64,000 nt of DNA from Streptomyces kaniharaensis (GTDB lineage: Bacteria > Actinomycetota > Actinomycetes > Streptomycetales > Streptomycetaceae): positions 2,118,001 to 2,182,000 of the forward strand of contig NZ_WBOF01000001.1 in NCBI RefSeq assembly GCF_009569385.1, written 5' to 3'. The position numbers were made by a program, and so were the translations under genes. Shown here one piece after another: positions 41,856 through 64,000 of this stretch. The first letter of the stretch is position 1; each line of letters begins with the position of its first letter. The notes under the pieces were generated by a model. It saw nothing but the letters and a program-made list of their open reading frames with translations. It searched no databases and was not told where the DNA came from.

Positions 41856-42677
41856 GTGAACGCAACTCCTCAGTCGGTCGTCTCCGCCGACCCCTACGCC
41901 GCCGCCCAGGCCGCCGCCGAGCGCCTGCGCGAGCTGACCGGTGCCGAGCGCCACGACGTCGCCCTGGTGATGGGCTCCGGCTGGGTGCCGGCCGCCGACG
42001 CCCTGGGCGAGACCGTGGCCGAGTTCCCGGTCACCGAGATCCCGGGCTTCCCCGCCCCCGCCGTCGCCGGCCACGCCGGCAAGATCCGCTCGGTGAAGAT
42101 CGGCGACAAGCGCGCCCTGATCTTCCTCGGCCGCAACCACTACTACGAGGGCCACGGCGTGGCCACCGTCGTCCACGGCGTGCGCACCGCCGCCGCGGCC
42201 GGCTGTGGCATCGTCGTGCTCACCAACGGCTGCGGCGGTCTGCGCCAGGGCTGGGTCCCCGGCCAGCCGGTCCTGATCAGTGACCACATCAACCTGACCG
42301 CGGACTCCCCGATCGTCGGCGCCAACTTCGTCGACCTCACCGACCTCTACTCCAAGCGCCTGCGCACGCTGTGCCGCGAGGTCGACCCGACCCTCGACGA
42401 GGCCGTCTACGTGCAGTTCCGCGGCCCGCACTACGAGACCCCGGCCGAGGTCAACATGGCCCGGGTGATCGGCGGCGAGCTGGTCGGCATGTCCACCACC
42501 CTGGAGGCCATCGCCGCCCGCGAGGCCGGCGCCGAGGTGCTCGGCATCTCCCTGGTCACCAACCTGGCCGCCGGCATGACCGGCGAGCCGCTCAACCACG
42601 AAGAGGTCCTGGAGGCCGGCAAGGCCTCCGCCGAGCGCATGGGTGAGCTTCTGGCGAAGGTCCTTGAGCGGATCTGA
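41856..42677 (+). CDS. punA: Purine nucleoside phosphorylase
   Basis: A 273-residue trimer-type phosphorylase that splits inosine, guanosine and their deoxy forms into base and (deoxy)ribose-1-phosphate. Family marks are [10 protein letters not shown] (phosphate site near residue 36), GRNHYYEGH, the base-binding Glu in [10 protein letters not shown] and Asn in [10 protein letters not shown]. The Glu/Asn pair indicates 6-oxopurine specificity. The GTG start at 41856 lies directly after a promoter, without a ribosome site, so translation is probably leaderless. A large terminator separates it from the downstream phosphomutase. Confidence 0.95.
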
Positions 42678-42703
42678 CCCCGATCCGGCGCACAATCATG
42701 AGC

Positions 42704-42759
42704 GACGGGGCCCACGGGCGGCCGTGATCGGCTGATCACACCCGCCCGCGGGCCCCGTC
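42704..42759 (+). terminator. Long terminator of punA
   Basis: 18-bp arms (42704-42721 and 42742-42759, one mismatch) enclose an inner hairpin GTGATC-GGCT-GATCAC. It lies 27 bp after the punA stop codon. Confidence 0.85.
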
Positions 42760-42827
42760 CGCATGTGCACCCCGTTTTGCGGAACTTCCGGCCGACCAAC
42801 CGACGCACTTCCGATGGAGCAGGCAGC

Positions 42828-44546
42828 ATGACGCAGGCACCCACCACCGACCTCCTCGCCCGGGCCCGGGCCTGGCTGGCCGAGGACCCCGACCCGCAGA
42901 CCCGCGAGGAGCTGACCGCGCTGCTGGCCCGGGCCGAGAGCCCGGAGGGCGCGGAGGACAGCAACCTCGCCTGGGCGGAGCTCACCGAGCGCTTCTCCGA
43001 CCGGCTCCAGTTCGGCACCGCCGGCCTGCGCGGCGAACTCGGCGCGGGCCCGATGCGGATGAACCGCGCCGTGGTGATCCGGGCCGCCGCCGGCCTGGTC
43101 GCGTACGTGAAGAAGCAGGGCCTCGGCGACCTCGTCGTCATCGGCTACGACGCCCGCCACAAGTCGTACGACTTCGCCCGGGACACCGCCGCCGTGGTGG
43201 TCGGCGCCGGCCTGCGCGCCGCGCTGCTGCCCCGCCCGCTGCCCACCCCGGTCCTCGCCTTCGCCGTCCGCCACCTGGGCGCGGCCGCCGGCGTCACCGT
43301 CACCGCCAGCCACAACCCGCCGCAGGACAACGGCTACAAGGTCTACCTGGGCGACGGCTCGCAGATCGTCCCGCCGGCCGACGCCGGGATCGCCGCCGAG
43401 ATCGACGCGATCGGCTCGCTCGCCGAGGTCCCGCTGGCCGAGGAGGGCTGGGAGGTGCTCGGCGAGGACGTCGTCGACGCCTACCTGACCCGGGCCGTCT
43501 CGATCGTCGACGAGCACAGCCCGCGCGACCTCGACGTCGTCTACACCCCGATGCACGGCGTCGGCCGGGACGTCCTGGTCGCCGCGTTCAAGCGGGCCGG
43601 CTTCCCGGCGCCCACCGTGGTCGCCGAGCAGGCCGAGCCCGACCCGGACTTCCCGACCGTGGCCTTCCCCAACCCGGAGGAGCCGGGGGCGATGGACCTC
43701 GCCTTCCGCACCGCCGCGTCGGTCGGCCCGGACATCGTCATCGCCAACGACCCGGACGCCGACCGCTGCGCGGTGGCCGTCCCCGCCAACAGCAACGCGG
43801 CCGGCAGCGGCAACGGCACCTCCGGCTGGCGGATGCTCCGCGGCGACGAGGTCGGCGCGCTGCTCGGCTCGGCCCTGGTCGCCAAGAAGGTCGAGGGCAC
43901 CTTCGCCACCACCATCGTCTCCGCCACCCTGCTCGGCCGGATCGCCGAGGCCGCCGGCCTCGGCTACGCCGAGACGCTGACCGGCTTCAAGTGGATCTCC
44001 CGCGCCGACGGCCTGCGCTACGGCTACGAGGAGGCGCTCGGCTACTGCGTCGACCCGCAGGGCGTCCGGGACAAGGACGGCGTCACCGCCGCCCTGCTGG
44101 TCGCCGAACTGGCCGCCACCCTCAAGAAGTCCGGCCGCACCCTGACCGACCTGCTGGACGACCTGGCGCTGGAGCACGGCCTGCACGCCACCGACCAGCT
44201 GTCCGTCCGGGTCCAGGACCTCTCGCTGATCGGCGCCGCGATGCGCCGCCTGCGCGAGCAGCCGCCGACCGTCCTGGCCGGCCTGACCGTCACCCGGGCC
44301 GACGACCTGACCGCCGGCTCCGCCGACCTGCCGCCCACCGACGGCCTGCGCTACTACCTGGCCGGCGAGGCCGTCCGCTCGGCGCGGATCGTCGTCCGGC
44401 CGTCCGGCACCGAGCCCAAGCTCAAGTGCTACCTGGAGGTCGTCCTGCCGGTCGCCTCCGCGGCCGAGCTCGTCGGCACCCGCGAGCGGGCCGCCGAACT
44501 GCTCGACGCGATCAAGCGCGACCTGGCGGTGGCCGCGGGCATCTGA
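42828..44546 (+). CDS. Phosphohexomutase family protein, probably phosphopentomutase (PGM2-like)
   Basis: A 572-residue alpha-D-phosphohexomutase, longer than ordinary PMM/PGM (about 450) and like the PGM2/phosphopentomutase branch. The four active-site loops are visible: phosphoserine in TASHNPPQDNGYK, metal site NDPDADR, sugar loop GFKWISRADG and phosphate loop RPSGTEPKLK. It sits between purine nucleoside phosphorylase and deoC. I infer that it turns ribose-1- and deoxyribose-1-phosphate into the 5-phosphates, joining those two enzymes; databases would probably call it phosphomannomutase. Start ATG 42828 follows GGAG. It has its own terminator. Confidence 0.85.
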   Translation: MTQAPTTDLLARARAWLAEDPDPQTREELTALLARAESPEGAEDSNLAWAELTERFSDRLQFGTAGLRGELGAGPMRMNRAVVIRAAAGLVAYVKKQGLGDLVVIGYDARHKSYDFARDTAAVVVGAGLRAALLPRPLPTPVLAFAVRHLGAAAGVTVTASHNPPQDNGYKVYLGDGSQIVPPADAGIAAEIDAIGSLAEVPLAEEGWEVLGEDVVDAYLTRAVSIVDEHSPRDLDVVYTPMHGVGRDVLVAAFKRAGFPAPTVVAEQAEPDPDFPTVAFPNPEEPGAMDLAFRTAASVGPDIVIANDPDADRCAVAVPANSNAAGSGNGTSGWRMLRGDEVGALLGSALVAKKVEGTFATTIVSATLLGRIAEAAGLGYAETLTGFKWISRADGLRYGYEEALGYCVDPQGVRDKDGVTAALLVAELAATLKKSGRTLTDLLDDLALEHGLHATDQLSVRVQDLSLIGAAMRRLREQPPTVLAGLTVTRADDLTAGSADLPPTDGLRYYLAGEAVRSARIVVRPSGTEPKLKCYLEVVLPVASAAELVGTRERAAELLDAIKRDLAVAAGI

Positions 44547-44562
44547 TCGCCGCCCCGACACG

Positions 44563-44607
44563 GAAGGGGCCCGCCGATCGCGTACTCGCGTACCGGCGGG
44601 CCCCTTC
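44563..44607. terminator. Bidirectional terminator
   Basis: A perfect 14-bp stem (44563-44576 with 44594-44607); an outer GACACGG/CCGTGTC pair (44557-44563, 44614-44620) could extend it. It lies between two converging genes. Confidence 0.85.
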
Positions 44608-44621
44608 GTTCGTCCGTGTCC

Positions 44622-45305
44622 TCAGACCGTGATCACCGTGATCAGCGCGGCCAGGCCGACCAGCGTCGGCACGATCACCCACCAGCACCAGCGGACCACG
44701 ACCGACCCGGCGGCGTCCGGACGGCCCGCGTTGCGCTCGGCCATCTCCTGGAGCACCCCGGTCACCTGGTCGGACCAGGCCCGCGTCGGGTCCGAGGAGC
44801 CCAGCACCTCCGGGACGGCGGGCATGGTGCCGCGCCCGAAGACCGTCCCCAGCCGGGAGCTGTGCTCCGCCCCGCCGCGCAGTGCGGCCCGGTTGGCCCG
44901 CTTGCGCTGGCGCAGTGACACCGGGACGGCCCACACCTGGAACTTCCTGCCGTCGGCGAGCAGTTCGACCGAGTACCCGGCGCGCAGCGCGTCCACCGCC
45001 GCCCACGGCGCGGTGATCGTCCGCCACGGGTTGCGCACCACCAGCCGCCGGTCGTTGGCCAGCACCGCCGGGCGCAGCGTGTAGGCGATCACCGGGAAGG
45101 CGAACACGGGCACCGCCGCGAGGGAGACGTACGGCGTCTTCCCCGTCCCGTTCAGCGCCGCGTCGCCGATCAGCCAGGCGGCCACGGCCAGCAGCAACAC
45201 GCCGGAGATCACTCCGGGAACGGAGCGGTACACGCGGTCCGCGTACACCGGCTCCCCGTCGGGGGCGGCGGAGCCCTTTTGGGGCTTGCCGTCGGAATCG
45301 CTCAT
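44622..45305 (-). CDS. PH-domain membrane protein
   Basis: A 227-residue protein with hydrophobic helices at about residues 30-52, 62-80 and 207-227. Between them a bacterial PH-like domain (residues 78-130) is suggested by LANDRRLVVRNPWRTITAPW and VELLADGRKFQVWAVPVS. Such proteins are common in actinobacteria; their role is unknown. The ATG at 45305 has CAGAAT (45318-45313) ending 7 nt before it, a possible leaderless promoter. It is divergent from deoC. Confidence 0.75.
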   Translation of the reverse strand: MSDSDGKPQKGSAAPDGEPVYADRVYRSVPGVISGVLLLAVAAWLIGDAALNGTGKTPYVSLAAVPVFAFPVIAYTLRPAVLANDRRLVVRNPWRTITAPWAAVDALRAGYSVELLADGRKFQVWAVPVSLRQRKRANRAALRGGAEHSSRLGTVFGRGTMPAVPEVLGSSDPTRAWSDQVTGVLQEMAERNAGRPDAAGSVVVRWCWWVIVPTLVGLAALITVITV

Positions 45306-45505
45306 GTCGACGATTCTGCCCCATGCCTGCGCGGATGAGGTCTCGATGCAGCATCGAAATACCGCCTCCGAACCGGCCTCGCCAGGCCTCGTCCGACCCC
45401 CTCCTCCCTGCCCCCGCTCCCCGATCCACGCGCGCCCCAACCCCGCCCCTCCACCCCACCCCAGATCTCGTTCCGGCCACGAAAGGTGGGCCCTCTAGCG
45501 GTCGG

Positions 45506-45524
45506 CTACGCGCGTAGATATGCT
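45506..45524 (+). promoter_or_regulatory. deoC promoter with nucleoside-regulon palindrome
   Basis: CTACGCGCGTAG (45506-45517) is followed after one base by the -10 TATGCT (45519-45524), which ends 6 nt before the GTG of deoC. The palindrome fills the promoter spacer, so a bound protein should repress. Confidence 0.8.
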
Positions 45525-45530
45525 GGTCTG

Positions 45531-46523
45531 GTGACTATGTCCACTGTTGCAGCCAATGCCCCCGGCGTTGCGGGCAGCGGCCTTGCGGACGTTGCGGCGT
45601 CCGAGGCCTCGCTCCGCCGCTTCTTGCACGGCCTGCCCGGCGTCGACCAGGTCGGCCTGGAGGCGCGTGCCGCCACCCTCGGAACCCGCTCGATCAAGAC
45701 CGCGGCGAAGGCCTACGCCATCGACCTGGCGATCTCGATGATCGACCTGACCACGCTGGAGGGCGCGGACACGGTCGGCAAGGTGCGCGCCCTGTGCACC
45801 AAGGGCAGGACCCCCGACCCGACCGACCCGACCACCCCCCGCGTCGCCGCCATCTGTGTCTATCCGGACATGGTCGCCACCGCGAAGGCCGCCCTGCGGG
45901 GCACCGACATCCAGGTCGCCTCCGTCGCCACCGCCTTCCCCGCCGGCCGCGCCGCCCTCCCGGTGAAGCTCGCCGACACCGCCGACGCGGTCGCCGCGGG
46001 CGCCGACGAGATCGACATGGTGATCGACCGCGGTGCCTTCCTCTCCGGCCGTTACCTCGACGTCTTCAACGAGATCGTCGCCGTCAAGGAGGCGTGCAAG
46101 CGCCCGGACGGCAGCTACGCCCACCTCAAGGTGATCTTCGAGACCGGCGAGCTGCAGACGTACGACAACGTGCGCCGCGTCTCCTGGCTGGCGATGCTGG
46201 CCGGTGCCGACTTCATCAAGACCTCCACCGGCAAGGTCGCCGTCAACGCGACCCCGCCGGTCACCCTGCTGATGCTGGAGGCGGTCCGCGACTTCCGCGC
46301 ACAGACCGGCGTCCAGGTCGGCGTGAAGCCCGCCGGCGGAATCAAGACCACCAAGGACGCCATGAAGTACCTGGTGATGGTCAACGAGACCCTCGGCGAC
46401 GACTGGCTGACCCCGCACTGGTTCCGCTTCGGCGCCTCCAGCCTGCTCAACGACCTGCTGATGCAGCGCCAGAAGCTCACCACCGGACGCTACTCCGGCC
46501 CCGACTACGTGACGGTGGACTGA
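45531..46523 (+). CDS. deoC: Deoxyribose-phosphate aldolase
   Basis: A 330-residue class I aldolase that splits 2-deoxyribose-5-phosphate into glyceraldehyde-3-phosphate and acetaldehyde. The Schiff-base lysine is Lys230 in ADFIKTSTGK; the second active-site lysine is in VGVKPAGGI, and the acidic residue is in DEIDMVID. At 330 residues it is of the long DeoC type, with an N-terminal extension. The GTG at 45531 is chosen because the -10 sits 6 nt upstream (leaderless); ATG 45537 is the alternative. The two ALDH genes follow in the same operon and can remove the acetaldehyde. Confidence 0.95.
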   Translation: MTMSTVAANAPGVAGSGLADVAASEASLRRFLHGLPGVDQVGLEARAATLGTRSIKTAAKAYAIDLAISMIDLTTLEGADTVGKVRALCTKGRTPDPTDPTTPRVAAICVYPDMVATAKAALRGTDIQVASVATAFPAGRAALPVKLADTADAVAAGADEIDMVIDRGAFLSGRYLDVFNEIVAVKEACKRPDGSYAHLKVIFETGELQTYDNVRRVSWLAMLAGADFIKTSTGKVAVNATPPVTLLMLEAVRDFRAQTGVQVGVKPAGGIKTTKDAMKYLVMVNETLGDDWLTPHWFRFGASSLLNDLLMQRQKLTTGRYSGPDYVTVD

Positions 46524-46528
46524 TCACC

Positions 46529-48004
46529 ATGGCCAAGAAGAAGAACATCGAGGAGCCGGTGAAGGCCTCCGGCCTCTTCACCTACGCCCCGGCCCCCGAG
46601 TCCCCCGCCGCCGCGGGCGACATCGCCACCTCCTACGGCCACTTCATCGGCGGCGAGTTCGTCGACTCCTCCGGCAGCGAGGCCCTGAAGACGGTCAACC
46701 CGGCCACCGAGCAGGTGCTCGCCGAGTTCGCCCAGGGCACCGACGAGGACGTGGACCGCGCGGTCGCGGCCGCGCGCAAGGCCTTCGCCGACTGGTCGGC
46801 ACTGCCGGGCAGCGAGCGCGCCAAGTACCTGTTCCGGATCGCCCGGATCGTCCAGGAGCGCAGCCGCGAGCTGGCCGTGCTGGAGTCGATCGACAACGGC
46901 AAGCCGATCCGCGAGACCCGCGACGTCGACCTGCCGCTGGTCGCCGCGCACTTCTTCTACTACGCGGGCTGGGCGGACAAGCTGGACTACGCCGGCTTCG
47001 GCCCGAGCCCGAAGCCGCTCGGCGTGGCCGGTCAGGTCATCCCGTGGAACTTCCCGCTGCTGATGCTGGCGTGGAAGATCGCGCCCGCGCTGGCGACCGG
47101 CAACACGGTCGTCCTCAAGCCGGCCGAGACCACCCCGCTGACGGCTCTGCGCTTCGCCGAGATCTGCCGCCAGGCCGGTCTGCCGAAGGGCGTCGTCAAC
47201 ATCGTCACCGGCGACGGCCGCACCGGCGCCGCGCTCACCGCGCACCCGGACGTCAACAAGGTGGCCTTCACCGGCTCCACCCCGGTCGGCCGGGCGATCG
47301 CCAAGCAGCTGGCGGGCACCCGCAAGAAGCTGTCGCTGGAGCTCGGCGGCAAGGCCGCGAACATCGTCTTCGACGACGCGCCGATCGACCAGGCGGTCGA
47401 GGGCATCGTCAACGGCATCTTCTTCAACCAGGGCCACGTCTGCTGCGCGGGCTCGCGCCTGCTGGTCCAGGAGTCGGTCCAGGACGAGCTGCTGGACGCC
47501 CTGAAGCGCCGGATGGCCACCCTGCGGGTCGGCGACCCGCTGGACAAGAACACCGACATCGGCGCGATCAACTCCGCCGAGCAGCTGGCCCGGATCACCG
47601 CGCTGACCGACGCCGGCGAGGCCGAGGGCGCCGAGCGCTGGTCGCCGACCTGCGAACTGCCGGGCACCGGCTTCTGGTTCAGGCCGACCCTGTTCACCGG
47701 CGTCAGCCAGGCCCACCGGATCGCCCAGGAGGAGATCTTCGGCCCGGTGCTGTCGGTGCTGACCTTCCGCACCCCCGCGGAGGCGGTCGAGAAGGCCAAC
47801 AACACCCCGTACGGCCTCTCCGCCGGCATCTGGACGGAGAAGGGCTCGCGCATCCTCTGGATGGCCAACAGGCTCAAGGCCGGCGTGGTCTGGGCCAACA
47901 CCTTCAACAAGTTCGACCCGACCTCGCCGTTCGGCGGCTACAAGGAGTCGGGCTACGGCCGCGAGGGTGGCCGCCACGGTCTGGAGGCCTACCTCGATGT
48001 CTGA
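46529..48004 (+). CDS. NAD-dependent aldehyde dehydrogenase
   Basis: A 491-residue catalytically complete ALDH. NAD-binding motifs are VIPWNFPLLM and VAFTGSTPVG; the general-base Glu271 is in LELGGKA and the nucleophile Cys305 is in NQGHVCCAGSR. EEIFGPVL and GVVWANTFNKFDP follow, as in the family. It starts 5 bp after deoC and overlaps the next gene by 8 nt. From its place I infer that it oxidises the acetaldehyde made by DeoC to acetate. Its partner is a half-length, inactive ALDH, so the pair looks like a split ALDH16. Confidence 0.92.
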   Translation: MAKKKNIEEPVKASGLFTYAPAPESPAAAGDIATSYGHFIGGEFVDSSGSEALKTVNPATEQVLAEFAQGTDEDVDRAVAAARKAFADWSALPGSERAKYLFRIARIVQERSRELAVLESIDNGKPIRETRDVDLPLVAAHFFYYAGWADKLDYAGFGPSPKPLGVAGQVIPWNFPLLMLAWKIAPALATGNTVVLKPAETTPLTALRFAEICRQAGLPKGVVNIVTGDGRTGAALTAHPDVNKVAFTGSTPVGRAIAKQLAGTRKKLSLELGGKAANIVFDDAPIDQAVEGIVNGIFFNQGHVCCAGSRLLVQESVQDELLDALKRRMATLRVGDPLDKNTDIGAINSAEQLARITALTDAGEAEGAERWSPTCELPGTGFWFRPTLFTGVSQAHRIAQEEIFGPVLSVLTFRTPAEAVEKANNTPYGLSAGIWTEKGSRILWMANRLKAGVVWANTFNKFDPTSPFGGYKESGYGREGGRHGLEAYLDV

Positions 48005-48926
48005 CACGACCTTCGCGCGTCTTGACGTCCTCAAGACCTACAAGCTGTACGTCGGCGGGAAGTTCCCGCGGTCCGAGAGCGGGCGGGTGTACGAGGTGAC
48101 CAAGGCGACATCAGCCGCTGACGCGGCGGGCAAGCGCGAGTGGCTCGCGAACGCCCCGCTGGGCACCCGCAAGGACGCCCGCGACGCCGTGCTGGCCGCC
48201 CGTGCGGCGGTCAAGGGCTGGGCCGGCACCACCGCGTACAACCGCGGCCAGGTGCTGTACCGGGTCGCCGAGATGCTGCAGGGCCGGCGCGAGCAGTTCG
48301 CCGCCGAGGTGGCCGTCTCCGAGGGCATCGGCCCGAAGAAGGCCGCCGCGCTGGTGGACGCCGCGATCGACCGCTGGGTCTGGTACGCGGGCTGGACGGA
48401 CAAGGTCGCCCAGATCGCGGGCGGCGCCAACCCGGTCGCCGGGCCGTTCTTCAACCTCTCCACCCCGGAGCCGACCGGCGTGGTCGGGATCGTCGCCCCG
48501 CAGGCCGGGTACGGGCACTCGCTGCTCGGCCTGGTGTCGGTGATCGCCCCGGCGATCGCCACCGGCAACACCGTCGTGGTCGCCGCCGCCGCGGACGCCC
48601 CGCTGCCCGCCCTGTCGCTGGGCGAGGTGCTGGCCACCTCGGACGTCCCGGGCGGTGTGGTGAACATCATCTCGGGCCGGACCGCGGACATCGCGCCCAC
48701 CCTGGCCTCGCACCAGGACGTCAACGCGCTGGACCTCACCGGTGCCATCGCGGCCGACGGTCCCGGCGCGGCGCCCGCCCTGGAGGCCGCCGCCGCGGAT
48801 ACCCTGAAGCGGGTGGTTCGTCCGGAGCTGGACCCGTTCGCCCGGGACTGGACCGACGCGCCCGGTACGGACCGGCTACTCTCGTTCCTGGAGACGAAGA
48901 CGGTCTGGCACCCGATGGGGATCTGA
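47997..48926 (+). CDS. Catalytically inactive half-ALDH
   Basis: A 309-residue ALDH-fold protein, about two thirds of normal length. The N-terminal and NAD-binding portions are recognisable (KLYVGGKFPRSESGRVYEV, GVVGIVAPQAGYGHSLLGLV, ATGNTVVVAAAADAPLPALS, GVVNIISG). The catalytic portion is missing: there is no ELGGK Glu, no GQxC cysteine and no EEIFGP, and the protein jumps to the ALDH C-terminus (ETKTVWHPMG). The start overlaps the preceding ALDH stop by 8 nt, so expression is coupled. The intact frame argues against a pseudogene. It is probably a structural or regulatory partner, like the dead second domain of ALDH16 enzymes. Confidence 0.8.
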   Translation: MSDTTFARLDVLKTYKLYVGGKFPRSESGRVYEVTKATSAADAAGKREWLANAPLGTRKDARDAVLAARAAVKGWAGTTAYNRGQVLYRVAEMLQGRREQFAAEVAVSEGIGPKKAAALVDAAIDRWVWYAGWTDKVAQIAGGANPVAGPFFNLSTPEPTGVVGIVAPQAGYGHSLLGLVSVIAPAIATGNTVVVAAAADAPLPALSLGEVLATSDVPGGVVNIISGRTADIAPTLASHQDVNALDLTGAIAADGPGAAPALEAAAADTLKRVVRPELDPFARDWTDAPGTDRLLSFLETKTVWHPMGI

Positions 48927-59949: not shown

Positions 59950-61227
59950 CTACGCGATGCGGTCGAGGATGATCGGGGTCGGGGTGAACTCGGTGCCCGC
60001 GGGGGCGACCTCGACACCGCCGGCCAGGGCCTCGATGGCGTAGTCGTAGCGCTCGGGGGTGTCGGTGTGCAGGGTCAGCAGAGGCTGGCCGGCCACGACG
60101 GTGTCGCCGGGCTTGGCGTGCATCTCGACGCCGGCGCCGGCCTGCACCGGGTCCTCCTTGCGGGCGCGGCCGGCGCCGAGGCGCCAGGCGCAGACGCCGA
60201 CGGCGTAGGCGTCGAGCGCGGTGAGCACGCCGGAGGCGGGAGCGGGGATGACGTGCTGCTCGCGGGCCACCGGGAGCGGAGCGTCGACGTCGCCGCCCTG
60301 GGCGGCGATCATGCGGCGCCAGTGGTCCATCGCGGAGCCGTCGCGCAGCGCCTCGGCCGGGTCCTTGCCGTGCACGCCGGCCGCGGCGAGCATCTCGCGG
60401 GCGAGGGCGACGGTGAGCTCGACGACGTCGGCGGGGCCGCCGCCGGCCAGCACCTCCAGGGACTCGCGGACCTCCAGCGCGTTGCCGGCGGTGAGGCCGA
60501 GCGGGGTGGACATGTCGGTGAGCAGGGCGACGGTGTTGACCCCGGCGGTGGTGCCCAGGCCGACCATGGTGCGGGCGAGTTCACGGGCGTCGTCGAGGTT
60601 CTTCATGAACGCGCCGGAGCCGACCTTGACGTCCAGCACGAGCGAACCGGTGCCCTCGGCGATCTTCTTGGACATGATCGAGGAGGCGATCAGCGGGATG
60701 GCCTCGACGGTGCCGGTGACGTCGCGCAGCGCGTAGAGCTTCTTGTCGGCGGGGGCGAGGCCGTCGCCGGCGGCGCAGATCACCGCGCCGGTGTTGCGGA
60801 GCACGTCCAGCATCTCCTCGTTGGAGAGCAGCGCGCGCCAGCCGGGGATGGACTCCAGCTTGTCGAGGGTGCCGCCGGTGTGGCCGAGGCCGCGGCCGGA
60901 GAGCTGCGGGACGGCGGCGCCGCAGGCGGCGACGAGCGGGGCGAGCGGGAGGGTGATCTTGTCGCCGACGCCGCCGGTGGAGTGCTTGTCGCTGGTGGGC
61001 AGCGGCAGCGAGGAGAAGTCCATCCGGACGCCGGAGCGGATCATGGCGTCGGTCCAGCGGCTGATCTCGCGCAGGTTCATGCCGTTCAGCAGGATCGCCA
61101 TGGCCAGGGCGGACATCTGCTCGTCGGCGACCTCGCCGCGGGTGTAGGCGTCGATGACCCAGTCGATCTGAGCGTCGCTCAGCTCTCCGCGGTCACGCTT
61201 GGTCCTTATGACGGAGATGGCGTCCAT
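59950..61227 (-). CDS. deoA: Thymidine (pyrimidine nucleoside) phosphorylase
   Basis: A 425-residue phosphorylase that splits thymidine, deoxyuridine or uridine into base and pentose-1-phosphate. Family signatures: KHSTGGVGDK (phosphate site, near residue 80), SGRGLGHTGGTLDKLE (near residue 110), IMSKKIAEG and KVGSGAFMK (near residue 200). The C-terminal domain has MHAKPGDTVVAGQPLL. Broad pyrimidine specificity is possible. The ATG at 61227 has GGAG upstream. It is the last gene of the permease-permease-cdd-deoA unit and may also have its own promoter next to the palindrome. Confidence 0.95.
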   Translation of the reverse strand: MDAISVIRTKRDRGELSDAQIDWVIDAYTRGEVADEQMSALAMAILLNGMNLREISRWTDAMIRSGVRMDFSSLPLPTSDKHSTGGVGDKITLPLAPLVAACGAAVPQLSGRGLGHTGGTLDKLESIPGWRALLSNEEMLDVLRNTGAVICAAGDGLAPADKKLYALRDVTGTVEAIPLIASSIMSKKIAEGTGSLVLDVKVGSGAFMKNLDDARELARTMVGLGTTAGVNTVALLTDMSTPLGLTAGNALEVRESLEVLAGGGPADVVELTVALAREMLAAAGVHGKDPAEALRDGSAMDHWRRMIAAQGGDVDAPLPVAREQHVIPAPASGVLTALDAYAVGVCAWRLGAGRARKEDPVQAGAGVEMHAKPGDTVVAGQPLLTLHTDTPERYDYAIEALAGGVEVAPAGTEFTPTPIILDRIA

Positions 61228-61255
61228 TCGTGCTCCAAGTGGGGTTCAAAAGCGA

Positions 61256-61310
61256 AGAGTGTCGCGAGATGACCGGGTTTCGGCCCACTCACGACACTCT
61301 ACGCGCGTAA
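61256..61310 (-). promoter_or_regulatory. Stem-loop and nucleoside palindrome between cdd and deoA
   Basis: CTACGCGCGTAA (61299-61310) matches the regulon palindrome at 11 of 12 bases. On the minus strand it runs into TAGAGT (61301-61296), a possible -10. Arms 61256-61268 and 61288-61300 pair over 13 bp with one mismatch, so a transcript from that promoter would begin with a hairpin. It may also process or attenuate the message from cdd. Confidence 0.65.
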
Positions 61311-61322
61311 CAATTGCAGATG

Positions 61323-61715
61323 CTAGAGCCGCTCCGGCCCGAACGCGTCGGGCAGGACCTCACTCATCGGGCGTACGCCCGAGGGCAGCTCGATCAGCAG
61401 CTCCGGACCGCCGTGCTCGTACAGCAGCTGGCGGCAGCGCCCGCACGGCATCAGCAGCTCGCCGGCGCCGTCCACGCAGGTGAAGGCGACCAGTCGGCCG
61501 CCCCCGCCGGCGTGCAGCGCGGACACCAGCCCGCACTCCGCGCACAGCCCGAGCCCGTACGAGGCGTTCTCGACGTTGCAGCCGGTGACCAGCCGCCCGT
61601 CGTCCACCAGGGCCGCCGCGCCGACCGGGAACTTGCTGTACGGGGCGTACGCGTGGCTCATCGCCTCGCGCGCCGCCGCGCGCAGCCGCTCCCAGTCGAC
61701 CACGGGGGCCGTCAC
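61323..61715 (-). CDS. cdd: Cytidine deaminase
   Basis: A 130-residue tetramer-type zinc enzyme that turns (deoxy)cytidine into (deoxy)uridine, giving substrate for DeoA or uridine kinase. Motifs: APYSKFPVGAA, NVENASYG, the zinc and catalytic Cys-Ala-Glu in LCAECGL and the second zinc pair in PCGRCRQ. The GTG at 61715 overlaps the permease stop as GTGA, so expression is coupled to the transporter. Confidence 0.95.
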   Translation of the reverse strand: MTAPVVDWERLRAAAREAMSHAYAPYSKFPVGAAALVDDGRLVTGCNVENASYGLGLCAECGLVSALHAGGGGRLVAFTCVDGAGELLMPCGRCRQLLYEHGGPELLIELPSGVRPMSEVLPDAFGPERL

Positions 61716-62977
61716 TTGCCCTGGCCCTTGCGGTAGATCTGGCCGTCCGCCTTCGGCATCCGCAGGCGCTGCGAGGCCAGCGAGAGCACCACCAGGGTGA
61801 TCAGGTACGGCGTGGCCACGATCAGCGGGCGCTGCACCTGGTCGGTCAGGGCGTACCAGGCGCCCAGACCGCCGGAGACCACCAGCGAGATCACCGTGGC
61901 GGTGAACTTGCGGCGGTACAGCTGCCAGACCGCAAGCAGTGCCATCGCGATGGAGACGGTGAGGATCAGCACGTGCACCGACTCCGGGTCACGCAGCTGG
62001 AGGCTGTCGGTGAAGCCGAAGAGACCGGCGCCCATGGCGAGCCCGCCCGGCATCCAGTTACCGAAGATCATCGCCGCGAGGCCGATGAAGCCTCGGCCGA
62101 GGGTCTGGCCGTCCTTGTAGAAGTGCGCCGCGACCAGCGAGAGGTACGCACCGCCGAGGCCCGCGAAGGCGCCGGAGGCGATGACCGCGAGGTACTTGTA
62201 CTTGTAGACGTTGACGCCCAGCGACTCGGCCGCGGTCGGGTTCTCACCGCAGGAGCGCAGCCGCAGGCCGAAGACCGTGCGCCACAGCACGAAGTAGCTG
62301 ACCACGATCAGGGCGGCGGCGAGCAGCACGACCACCGAGATGTTGGTGACCATGCCGCCGAGCACGCCGGCCACGTCCGAGATGAAGAACCAGTGGTGCT
62401 TCTCGATGTCGGCCAGCCAGGACGACAGCCCCGGGATGGTCATGTACGGCAGCGGATCGGCCGGCGGGGACTGGTTCGCGCCGGCACCGGCGGAGATGTA
62501 GTCCTTGTAGTAGATCCGGTTGACGTACGCGCAGATGCCGGGGATCAGCAGGTTGATACCGACACCGGACACGATGTGGTCGACGCCGAAGGTGACGGTG
62601 ATGATCGCGTGCAGCAGACCGCCCGCGGCACCGCCGACCATGCCGGCCACCAGACCGACCCACGGGTTGACCAGGTACCCGGCCCAGGCACCGCAGAAGG
62701 TGCCGGCGACCATCATGCCTTCGAGGCCGATGTTGACCACGCCGGCCCGCTCGGACCAGAGACCACCCAGACCGGCCATGCCGATCGGCACGGCGGCGCT
62801 GAGCGCGGCGGTGATCTGACCGGAGGAGGTCAGCGAGTGGTTGCCGGTGGCCATGCCCACGGCGGAGAACAGGGCGAGGGCGCCCGCGATCAGCAGGAGC
62901 ACCACCGGCCAGGACAGCTTGTGCTTCTTGGCAGGCGCGCCGGGCGCCTTCGGACGAGCAGCGGTAGCCGTGCTCAT
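61712..62977 (-). CDS. Nucleoside ABC transporter permease (second)
   Basis: A 421-residue membrane permease of the branched-chain/BMP-type ABC family (LivM/YufQ-like) used for nucleoside import. It has a basic N-terminal tail and about nine or ten hydrophobic segments. The conserved cytoplasmic EAA-like loop is in FGLRLRSCGENPTAAESLGVNVYKYKY, and the family motif NIGLEGMM lies near residue 82. It overlaps the upstream permease (ATGA) and cdd by 4 nt. Clustering with cdd and deoA supports nucleosides as substrate; the binding protein and ATPase should lie beyond the window. Confidence 0.9.
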   Translation of the reverse strand: MSTATAARPKAPGAPAKKHKLSWPVVLLLIAGALALFSAVGMATGNHSLTSSGQITAALSAAVPIGMAGLGGLWSERAGVVNIGLEGMMVAGTFCGAWAGYLVNPWVGLVAGMVGGAAGGLLHAIITVTFGVDHIVSGVGINLLIPGICAYVNRIYYKDYISAGAGANQSPPADPLPYMTIPGLSSWLADIEKHHWFFISDVAGVLGGMVTNISVVVLLAAALIVVSYFVLWRTVFGLRLRSCGENPTAAESLGVNVYKYKYLAVIASGAFAGLGGAYLSLVAAHFYKDGQTLGRGFIGLAAMIFGNWMPGGLAMGAGLFGFTDSLQLRDPESVHVLILTVSIAMALLAVWQLYRRKFTATVISLVVSGGLGAWYALTDQVQRPLIVATPYLITLVVLSLASQRLRMPKADGQIYRKGQGK

Positions 62978-64000
62978 GCGGACACCTCCTTCTTCTCAGT
63001 GGCCGCGAGCTGGGCGGCGAGCTGCGCGCCGACCTTCTGCTGCTGGCGCTTCAGGCCGTAGCGGCGCACCAGTTCGTACGCGACGACGACGCAGATGACG
63101 ATGGTGCCCTGCATGACGGCGACGATCTCGAACGGGAAACCGCCGTTCTTCGGCAGCGGCAGCTGGGAGCCGGTGGAGTCCAGGAACGCGAACAGCAGCG
63201 CCGCGAAGGCCATGCCGATCGGGCTGTTCCGGCCGAGCAGGGCGACCGAGATGCCGAGGAAGCCGAGGCCGCTCTGGAAGCTCTGGCCGAAGTAGTACGA
63301 GTTCTGCAGCAGCTCGGGCAGACCGATCAGACCGGCCAGACCGCCGGAGACGGCCATCGAGATCATGACCATCTTCCGGACGTTCACACCCGACGCGGTG
63401 GCGGCGCTCTCCGAGCGGCCGGTGGCGCGCAGATCGAAGCCGAAGCGGGTGCGGGTCAGCACGAACTGGAAGGCCACGCCGACCAGGATGGCGATGAACA
63501 GGAAGCCCCAGAGGGTGCCACCGGCCGTGCTGATCGAGAAGAAGTGGCTGGACTGAGAGACCGGGTTGGTCTGGATCGAGTTGCTGGTGGCGCCCACCTT
63601 CGGGGCGAAGATGCCCGGGACCAGCAGCAGACCGACGATCGCGATCGAGATGGCGTTCAGCATGATGGTCGAGATGACCTCGCTGACGCCGCGGTAGACC
63701 TTCAGCGCACCGGCGATGGCGGCGTACAGGCCACCGGCCAGCATGGCGGTGATCAGCAGCAGCGGGATCTGGATGACGGCCGGCAGGTCGATCTGGCTGC
63801 CGATGTACGCCGTGAACAGCGCCGCGACCCGGTACTGGCCCTCGACGCCGATGTTGAACAGGTTCATCCGGAACCCGAACGCGGCGGCCGCGGCGGCCAG
63901 GTAGTAGGTGGTGGCCCGGTTGAGGATCGCCACCTGGCCGTCCGACTTGGTGGCGTACGTGATCATCACGTTCCACGCGTCGAACGGGTTCTTGCCGGAG
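62974..64000 (-). CDS. Nucleoside ABC transporter permease (first, 5' end cut off)
   Basis: A permease of the same family (YufP-like), truncated by the right window edge; at least 341 residues are present and the frame runs on to 64000. Visible features are NIGVEGQYRVAALF (the family motif near the first helices), YRGVSEVISTIMLNAIS, RFGFDLRATGRSESAATASGVNVRK (cytoplasmic coupling loop) and a final helix followed by a basic tail. It overlaps the next permease by 4 nt. Its real start and the operon promoter are outside the window; a nucleoside palindrome would be expected there. Confidence 0.88.
   Translation of the reverse strand, partial: SGKNPFDAWNVMITYATKSDGQVAILNRATTYYLAAAAAAFGFRMNLFNIGVEGQYRVAALFTAYIGSQIDLPAVIQIPLLLITAMLAGGLYAAIAGALKVYRGVSEVISTIMLNAISIAIVGLLLVPGIFAPKVGATSNSIQTNPVSQSSHFFSISTAGGTLWGFLFIAILVGVAFQFVLTRTRFGFDLRATGRSESAATASGVNVRKMVMISMAVSGGLAGLIGLPELLQNSYYFGQSFQSGLGFLGISVALLGRNSPIGMAFAALLFAFLDSTGSQLPLPKNGGFPFEIVAVMQGTIVICVVVAYELVRRYGLKRQQQKVGAQLAAQLAATEKKEVSA

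What the first reader, a model, noticed from the sequence alone, without database searches (positions are those of the whole stretch)
42828..44546. The 'phosphomannomutase' is probably the missing phosphopentomutase
The deoxynucleoside pathway here has phosphorylases and DeoC but no classic DeoB. The 572-residue phosphohexomutase between punA and deoC is of the long PGM2-like type, some members of which act on pentose phosphates. That would close the pathway.
Basis: partly seen in the sequence, partly recalled or inferred. Interest (0 to 1): 0.5.

Follow-up and report, generated by a model that had tools for sequence, protein, structure and literature searches.

The report
Stand-in for the missing phosphopentomutase
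A gene usually labelled phosphomannomutase is most likely the enzyme that lets this soil bacterium burn the sugar of DNA and RNA building blocks, filling in for a standard enzyme that its genome lacks; the same swap seems to have happened in two large groups of bacteria, but no activity has been measured.

Summary
In detail: an intact 572-residue PGM2-like mutase lies at 42828-44546 between punA and deoC, and no DeoB was found in the 8.77 Mb genome.

(1) Of 396 Actinomycetota genomes, 124 carry this mutase clade and 141 DeoB; one has both, and its DeoB is a cousin type.
(2) Of 143 Myxococcota, 54 have the mutase, 47 DeoB, none both.
(3) punA lies within 3 kb in 37 of 81 loci; one genome has deoC-mutase-deoD, the deoB slot.
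(4) The sugar loop has Ala where hexose enzymes have Ser in 78 of 80 loops.
(5) GlmM, ManB and Pgm are separate genes here.

Against: two Vibrionaceae and a Shewanella carry the Ala-loop mutase and true DeoB; mycobacterial PmmB, probably an ortholog, has measured phosphomannomutase activity (PMC3229593); 37 of 81 loci lack nucleoside neighbours, some sitting beside galE. Activity is untested. Phosphopentomutases of this superfamily are known from animals, yeast and an archaeon: a new member of a known kind.

The parts
42828..44546 (+). PGM2-like phosphosugar mutase, proposed phosphopentomutase (572 aa)
   Evidence: AlphaFold2 model mean pLDDT 95.2
43302..43319 (+). catalytic phosphoserine loop TASHNP (residues 159-164)
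   Evidence: invariant in the 41 sequences of A4
43749..43766 (+). metal-binding loop DPDADR (residues 308-313)
44022..44048 (+). sugar-binding loop GYEEALGYC (residues 399-407); Ala403 where hexose enzymes have Ser
   Evidence: loop roles from PMC5570346 passages
44397..44420 (+). phosphate-binding loop RPSGTEPK (residues 524-531)
41856..42677 (+). punA, purine-nucleoside phosphorylase: makes (deoxy)ribose-1-phosphate
   Evidence: TIGR01698 329.2 bits, cut-off 302.6
42704..42760 (+). stable hairpin between punA and the mutase, terminator-like without a T run
   Evidence: fold of 42690-42775: MFE -58.6 kcal/mol, z -6.9
44564..44606 (+). stable hairpin after the mutase
   Evidence: fold of 44540-44625: z -5.1
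44622..45440 (-). PH-domain protein between mutase and deoC; no assigned role
   Evidence: PF10756 23.5 bits, cut-off 22
45486..46523 (+). deoC, deoxyribose-phosphate aldolase: consumes deoxyribose-5-phosphate
   Evidence: TIGR00126 174.4 bits, cut-off 117.3
46526..48004 (+). aldehyde dehydrogenase; inferred to oxidise acetaldehyde from DeoC
   Evidence: family matches, none of those shown over its cut-off; the substrate is inferred
59950..61227 (-). deoA, thymidine phosphorylase
   Evidence: PRK05820 636 bits, cut-off 269
61323..61715 (-). cdd, cytidine deaminase
   Evidence: PRK05578 192.7 bits, cut-off 74
61712..63969 (-). two ABC permease genes next to cdd-deoA; probable nucleoside importer
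   Evidence: family matches below cut-off; nucleoside role inferred from neighbours

Best explanation
The 572-residue mutase is the working phosphopentomutase of this organism. PunA and DeoA release ribose-1-phosphate and deoxyribose-1-phosphate. The mutase moves the phosphate to carbon 5 by the usual mechanism of its superfamily (phospho-Ser161, Mg2+ at the DPDADR loop, a bisphosphate intermediate). Ribose-5-phosphate enters the pentose phosphate pathway; deoxyribose-5-phosphate goes to DeoC, giving glyceraldehyde-3-phosphate and acetaldehyde. It replaces the unrelated DeoB, not found in this genome nor, with one exception (a cousin type), in the sampled Actinomycetota genomes that carry this clade. 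Shown: gene, motifs, absence of DeoB matches, mutual exclusion, neighbourhood. Inferred: substrate, direction and mechanism. Side activity on hexose phosphates is likely.
For: No DeoB of either NCBIfam type found in the genome. 124 clade A and 141 DeoB genomes among 396 Actinomycetota, overlap 1 (G162), which is a PRK12383-type cousin. Among 299 DeoC-carrying genomes: 118 clade A only, 127 DeoB only, 1 both, 53 neither. By family: 26 with clade A, 34 with DeoB, 1 in both lists but in different genomes, 21 in neither; one-sided Fisher p 3e-7. In 143 Myxococcota: 54 clade A-like, 47 DeoB, 0 both; 7 of 15 genomes with only a more distant relative do have DeoB. punA within 3 kb on the same strand in 37 of 81 clade A loci (14 families) against 0 of 19 clade B loci. 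deoC-mutase-deoD in one strand in L051. After the two acidic/amide residues of the sugar loop 78 of 80 clade A proteins have Ala (61 EEA, 17 EQA), 2 Ser; 19 of 19 clade B have Ser. Animal PGM2 lacks that Ser; PGM1 and PGM2L1 have it (PMC5570346, passages). GlmM, ManB and Pgm are separate genes here.
Against: No activity measured. Overexpressed mycobacterial PmmB gave phosphomannomutase activity and its M. smegmatis mutant had half the lipoglycan sugar (PMC3229593, passages). Two Vibrionaceae and one Shewanella have the Ala loop and a full DeoB, so the loop is no proof. Two genomes of one family have the Ser loop yet sit in a punA-mutase-deoC cluster. In 37 of 81 clade A loci none of punA, deoD, deoC or deoA was found nearby; some of these sit beside galE or otsA-like genes. 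53 DeoC-carrying genomes have neither enzyme, so a missing DeoB does not always bring clade A: 123 of 255 genomes without DeoB have it. The genome-level p-values are not corrected for relatedness, and the clade limits were set after seeing the match lists.
Confidence: 0.83

Rival explanations
1. A second phosphomannomutase/phosphoglucomutase (the PmmB label). It makes mannose-1-phosphate or glucose-1-phosphate, and its place beside punA is historical.
For: Mycobacterial PmmB raised phosphomannomutase activity on overexpression and its mutant lost half the lipoglycan sugar (PMC3229593, passages); S. coelicolor sco4916 is called a possible alternative phosphomannomutase (PMC5982138, passages); deep clade A members sit beside galE or otsA-like genes; Bacillus PgcA is a phosphoglucomutase (PMC6797236, passages), and that it belongs to the same wider group is recalled.
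Against: The same genome has a separate ManB (PRK09542 759.6 bits, cut-off 618), Pgm and GlmM; P0001 scores 58 bits on the ManB model. In S. coelicolor disruption of the ManB gene sco3028 gives severe mannose-pathway defects although sco4916 is present (PMC5982138; the authors allow it residual activity). It does not explain mutual exclusion with DeoB in samples of two phyla. Superfamily members can be promiscuous (PMC6797236).
Confidence: 0.12
2. A glucose-1,6-bisphosphate synthase that makes the activator of the other phosphohexomutases.
For: Vertebrate PGM2L1, of the same CDD group as PGM2, and cyanobacterial Slr1334 do this (PMC9426568, passages).
Against: Slr1334 belongs to another subgroup, cd05800; PGM2L1 is vertebrate-only and has the Ser that is missing here (PMC5570346); a synthase would not be expected to exclude DeoB or to sit beside punA.
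Confidence: 0.03
3. The pathway is closed by another protein (a distant metalloenzyme or a third superfamily), and the mutase is unrelated to it.
For: 53 of 299 DeoC-carrying genomes have neither known enzyme, so other solutions may exist.
Against: The only PF01676 match in the genome is 20.9 bits, below the 24.3 cut-off; no other candidate was seen beside the phosphorylase.
Confidence: 0.02

Closest known systems
Animal PGM2 / yeast Pgm3 (Prm15) phosphopentomutase, CDD group cd05799
   Same: Similar length (human PGM2 612 residues), two Glu in the sugar loop not followed by Ser (PMC5570346, passages); yeast Pgm3 works downstream of purine nucleoside phosphorylase (PMC4039369, passages).
   Different: Eukaryotic; the bacterial enzyme sits in nucleoside gene clusters and has no measured activity. 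Direct sequence comparison was not made: none of the PDB hits is named PGM2. That Pgm3 is in the PGM2 group is recalled.
Thermococcus kodakarensis phosphopentomutase TK1777 (PDB 9ix8)
   Same: Alpha-phosphohexomutase fold acting on pentose phosphates (PMC11641776, passages); found by fold, TM 0.67 by query length.
   Different: Only 22% identical over the fold match, about 450 residues; other hexose mutases match the model as well or better.
Mycoplasma deoB/0733 and MPN066 (inferred phosphopentomutases)
   Same: 0733 is a putative phosphoglucomutase gene assigned as phosphopentomutase from its nucleoside-gene neighbours and 21% identity to TK1777 (PMC6609329, passages). MPN066 is listed as phosphopentomutase in another model (PMC3764002, passage); its superfamily is recalled.
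   Different: Another phylum, assignment also by inference; the sequences were not compared here.
Mycobacterial PmmB (Rv3308 / MSMEG_1695)
   Same: Probable ortholog: five named Mycobacterium/Mycolicibacterium loci (L182-L186) carry clade A members with punA near by, L182 also deoA and cdd, the order recalled for Rv3307-Rv3315c.
   Different: Published as a phosphomannomutase (PMC3229593, passages).
Bacillus subtilis PgcA
   Same: A bacterial phosphohexomutase (PMC6797236, passages); similar length and PGM2-clade placement are recalled.
   Different: Phosphoglucomutase with some glucosamine mutase activity; B. subtilis has DeoB (control).
DeoB phosphopentomutase (TIGR01696)
   Same: Proposed reaction and pathway position.
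   Different: Unrelated metalloenzyme family; P0001 has no match to it.

Membership tests
alpha-D-phosphohexomutase superfamily | Pfam domains PF02878, PF02879, PF02880, PF00408 over cut-off | tested here: met
alpha-D-phosphohexomutase superfamily | catalytic TASHNP, metal DxDxDR and phosphate RxSGTE loops | tested here: met
PGM2 group (cd05799) | assignment by the CDD model | not testable with these tools
   CDD is not among the libraries
PGM2 group (cd05799) | sugar loop with two Glu and no Ser after them (PGM2, not PGM2L1) | tested here: met
   GYEEALGYC in P0001; in clade A 61 of 80 EEA, 17 EQA, 2 EES; rule from PMC5570346 passages
phosphopentomutase (EC 5.4.2.7) | activity on ribose-1-phosphate and deoxyribose-1-phosphate | not testable with these tools
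   needs an assay
DeoB (TIGR01696 / PRK12383) | match to the metalloenzyme models | tested here: not met
   no match for P0001; none in the genome
ManB phosphomannomutase (PRK09542) | score over 618 bits | tested here: not met
   58.1 bits
Pgm phosphoglucomutase (TIGR01132) | score over 778 bits | tested here: not met
   57.7 bits
GlmM (TIGR01455) | score over 447.6 bits | tested here: not met
   112.7 bits
glucose-1,6-bisphosphate synthase (cd05800) | assignment to cd05800 and synthase activity | not testable with these tools
   CDD not available; no assay

The most novel reading that the evidence does not exclude
Ala-loop PGM2-type mutases are the standing replacement for DeoB in a large share of Actinomycetota (118 of 171 sampled genomes that have DeoC but no DeoB) and of Myxococcota. 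Most 'PmmB phosphomannomutase' annotations there, mycobacterial ones included, are then phosphopentomutases, and the pentose specialisation of the PGM2 group arose in bacteria, not in eukaryotes.
Probability: 0.55. Interest if true: 0.65.

Novelty: new member of a known kind. Interest (0 to 1): 0.52.

Why it matters
Muenks et al. 2017 leave open whether bacterial PGM2-like proteins are phosphopentomutases or still efficient phosphoglucomutases ('remains to be investigated', PMC5570346, section 8 read). The exclusion pattern turns that into one assay. If right, a gene annotated as phosphomannomutase in many Actinomycetota is misnamed, metabolic models of these organisms fill the gap wrongly, and a second, unrelated solution to the DeoB step is common in bacteria. 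In the listings of eight paper searches (some lists were cut) I saw no paper that assigns this function to the actinobacterial enzyme; most subscription journals are not held.

Tried and rejected
The Ala/Ser loop position as a stand-alone substrate test: rejected, because Vibrio owensii, a Vibrionaceae MAG and a Shewanella have the Ala loop with full DeoB, and two family f23 genomes have Ser inside a punA-deoC cluster. It stays as supporting evidence.

Operon with punA in this genome: weakened by the hairpin at 42704-42760; gaps in relatives were measured instead (44 loci given, 39 read).

TIGR01696 as the only DeoB probe: it scores the PRK12383-type cousin below its cut-off, so that family was searched too, in 80 of the 124 clade A genomes: 1 of 80. 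The other 44 were not searched.

Missed clade A members as the cause of the 53 'neither' genomes: 41 of the 53 were rechecked at E <= 1e-25 (the 12 left out carry clade B). 9 of 41 matched; one (G170, truncated, 42%) is similar, the other 8 are 29-33% identical.

Clade A as a genome's only spare hexose mutase: 60 of 60 genomes searched have 3 to 5 superfamily members, so this does not separate nucleoside-linked from unlinked lineages.

Clade limits: clade A is E <= 1e-95 plus G374, a truncated 56% match added by hand; the Myxococcota cut (E 2.5e-83 against 5.6e-77) was also set after seeing the list, and one match on its distant side (G466, truncated) has an Ala loop.

Tree: the careful search did not finish; the quick tree puts 61 clade A rows together (SH-aLRT 95) apart from 11 clade B rows (89), with one very long outgroup row. 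Treated as a guide only.

Fold search: confirms the superfamily, does not tell pentose from hexose.

Full report
WHAT IS THERE. The reading frame 42828-44546 (+) encodes 572 residues with all four domains of the alpha-phosphohexomutase superfamily. The catalytic motifs are intact: TASHNP at residues 159-164, DPDADR at 308-313, GYEEALGYC at 399-407, RPSGTEPK at 524-531. Seven NCBIfam models match and none reaches its cut-off, among them GlmM 113 of 447.6 bits, ManB 58 of 618, Pgm 58 of 778. An AlphaFold2 model from 41 aligned proteins is confident (mean pLDDT 95.2) and matches PMM, PGM and the Thermococcus phosphopentomutase by fold, which does not settle the substrate.

SURROUNDINGS. punA lies 150 bases upstream (TIGR01698 over cut-off) and deoC downstream, with a reverse-strand PH-domain gene between mutase and deoC. 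deoC is followed by an aldehyde dehydrogenase, and deoA, cdd and two ABC permease genes lie at 59950-63969. A very stable hairpin (z -6.9) separates punA from the mutase and another (z -5.1) follows the mutase, so in this genome the mutase may be its own transcription unit. Elsewhere the two genes are often close: of 44 loci given, 39 were read, and 25 of those have a gap of 60 bases or less, or an overlap (gaps are estimates, and one of them, -175, is an artefact of the start).

IS DEOB MISSING? By these searches, yes. TIGR01696 has no match in the genome, the PRK12383-type DeoB model none at E <= 1e-10, and the superfamily model PF01676 only one match below its cut-off. The genome is rated 100% complete.

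WHO DOES THE HEXOSE JOBS? The genome has five superfamily members. Besides this one they are GlmM (548.5 bits, cut-off 447.6), ManB (759.6, cut-off 618), Pgm (921, cut-off 778) and a guanylyltransferase-mutase fusion with none of the 25 models shown over cut-off. In S. coelicolor, disruption of the ManB gene sco3028 causes phage resistance and antibiotic sensitivity; the authors mention sco4916 only as a possible source of residual activity (PMC5982138, passages). That the window gene corresponds to sco4916 is my inference from remembered gene order.

PHYLETIC TEST, ACTINOMYCETOTA. The same 396 genomes were searched for the mutase (E <= 1e-50: 161 genomes), DeoB (E <= 1e-20: 141, of which 128 over the family cut-off) and DeoC (E <= 1e-10: 299). 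I split the mutase matches into clade A (124 genomes; 43-76% identity to the window protein, plus the window itself) and clade B (37 genomes, 37-42% among the rows listed). Clade A and DeoB meet in 1 genome, G162, where the match is a PRK12383-type cousin (442 bits on that model). Clade B meets DeoB in 11 of 37. Within the 299 DeoC genomes: 118 clade A only, 127 DeoB only, 1 both, 53 neither. Absence of DeoB does not always bring clade A: 123 of 255 genomes without DeoB have it, 118 of 171 of those with DeoC. At family level: 26 families with clade A, 34 with DeoB, 1 in both lists (f23, in different genomes), 21 in neither; one-sided Fisher p 3e-7 (51 genomes with none of the three had no family typed, and G162 was left out of the DeoB families). 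Genome-level p-values ignore relatedness.

PHYLETIC TEST, MYXOCOCCOTA. Named relatives from a public scan gave a centre for a second phylum. Of 143 genomes, 69 match the mutase at E <= 1e-50 and 47 have DeoB over cut-off. The 54 genomes with a closer match (E <= 2.5e-83) and the 47 DeoB genomes do not overlap; of the 15 with only a more distant match 7 have DeoB. PRK12383 was not searched there. Loci were fetched for 30 of the 54 and all 30 loops read EEA (29; L283 was misread there and read as EEALGY). Of 18 distant copies fetched (15 genomes and 3 second copies in closer-match genomes), 15 read EES, 1 (truncated, G466) EEA, 2 were not read. The cut was set after seeing the list.

COUNTEREVIDENCE FROM OTHER PHYLA. 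Of the 80 named loci, 50 genomes were searched for DeoB. Of 44 Actinomycetota none is over the cut-off, and Jiangella aurantiaca has a weak partial match. Two Myxococcota have none. Two Vibrionaceae and a Shewanella, all with the Ala loop, have full DeoB, and so does the Ser-loop Lachnospiraceae. The exclusion is thus not universal, and the loop alone does not give the function.

NEIGHBOURHOOD. In 81 clade A loci (80 of the 124 genomes), punA lies within 3 kb on the same strand in 37 (14 families), deoD in 2, deoC within 5 kb in 18; 44 have at least one of punA, deoD, deoC or deoA nearby and 37 have none of them. Some loci are cut by contig ends. In 19 clade B loci (17 genomes) punA is near none, and 1 has a nucleoside gene by the same test. 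Genome G133 has two clade A copies: one beside punA (L050), the other (L051) in the order deoC, mutase, deoD on one strand, deoC and mutase overlapping (deoD TIGR00107 277 bits, cut-off 232), which is the slot of deoB. Of the 80 named loci, chosen by similarity to a mycobacterial member, 53 have punA and 68 any of the four. Lineages without nucleoside neighbours include some with galE (L099, L107, L124) or gpmA and an otsA-like gene (L083); they may keep a hexose or mixed role.

SUGAR LOOP. In PGM1 the first Glu and the Ser of GEESF contact the sugar; PGM2 and PGM2L1 have FAFEE, and only PGM2L1, which acts on glucose-1-phosphate, has Ser next (PMC5570346, passages). Clade A has Ala there in 78 of 80 loops (61 EEA, 17 EQA) and Ser in 2; clade B has Ser in 19 of 19. 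Among the 80 named loci 78 have EEA, 1 has EES, 1 was not read. The two clade A exceptions (L105, L106) sit in a punA-mutase-deoC cluster.

LITERATURE. Phosphopentomutases of this superfamily are established for animal PGM2 (PMC5570346, passages and one section), yeast Pgm3/Prm15 (PMC4039369, passages) and Thermococcus TK1777 (PMC11641776, passages), and assigned by gene neighbourhood and weak similarity in a mycoplasma minimal cell (PMC6609329, passages). For bacterial PGM2-like proteins the question is left open (PMC5570346, section 8). The strongest contrary datum is mycobacterial PmmB: phosphomannomutase activity of about 0.6 mU/mg in an overexpressing strain, and half the arabinose and mannose in the mutant's lipoglycan fraction (PMC3229593, passages). 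Promiscuity is documented in this superfamily (PgcA, PMC6797236, passages). The joint loss of arabinose and mannose would also fit a pentose-phosphate defect, but that is my speculation.

VERDICT. It is a new member of a known kind; what is new is the breadth of the exclusion with DeoB in samples of two phyla, which makes an open question directly testable.

Noticed in passing
G162:C1:4818806-4819999 (L165, L181): One Streptomycetaceae genome carries a PRK12383-type DeoB-superfamily gene (442 bits, cut-off 254) besides the clade A mutase; Jiangella aurantiaca (L266) may have a similar one.
   Followed up: partly
family f14, 16 genomes such as G004 and G019: 16 small genomes of this family have DeoC but neither DeoB nor a full clade A mutase (G170 has a truncated 42% match); how they handle deoxyribose-1-phosphate is unexplained.
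   Followed up: partly
L099, L107, L124 (family f55); L083 (family f41): Deep clade A relatives sit beside galE, or beside gpmA and a trehalose-phosphate-synthase-like gene, suggesting a hexose or mixed role there.
   Followed up: partly
L105, L106 (family f23): Ser-loop variants nested inside the Ala-loop clade in the quick tree, in a punA-mutase-deoC-aldehyde dehydrogenase cluster with cdd (and deoA in L105) near by.
   Followed up: partly
L252: In a Shewanella genome that also has DeoB, an Ala-loop PGM2-like gene lies near adenosine deaminase.
   Followed up: no
window 47997-48926: A 309-residue frame matching only about the first half of aldehyde dehydrogenase models directly after the full aldehyde dehydrogenase of the deoC cluster; possibly a short paralogue.
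   Followed up: no
window 41856-44546: The closest named relative seen is Kitasatospora (L232: PunA 92%, mutase 78-79% identical), so the window probably comes from that genus or a near one.
   Followed up: no
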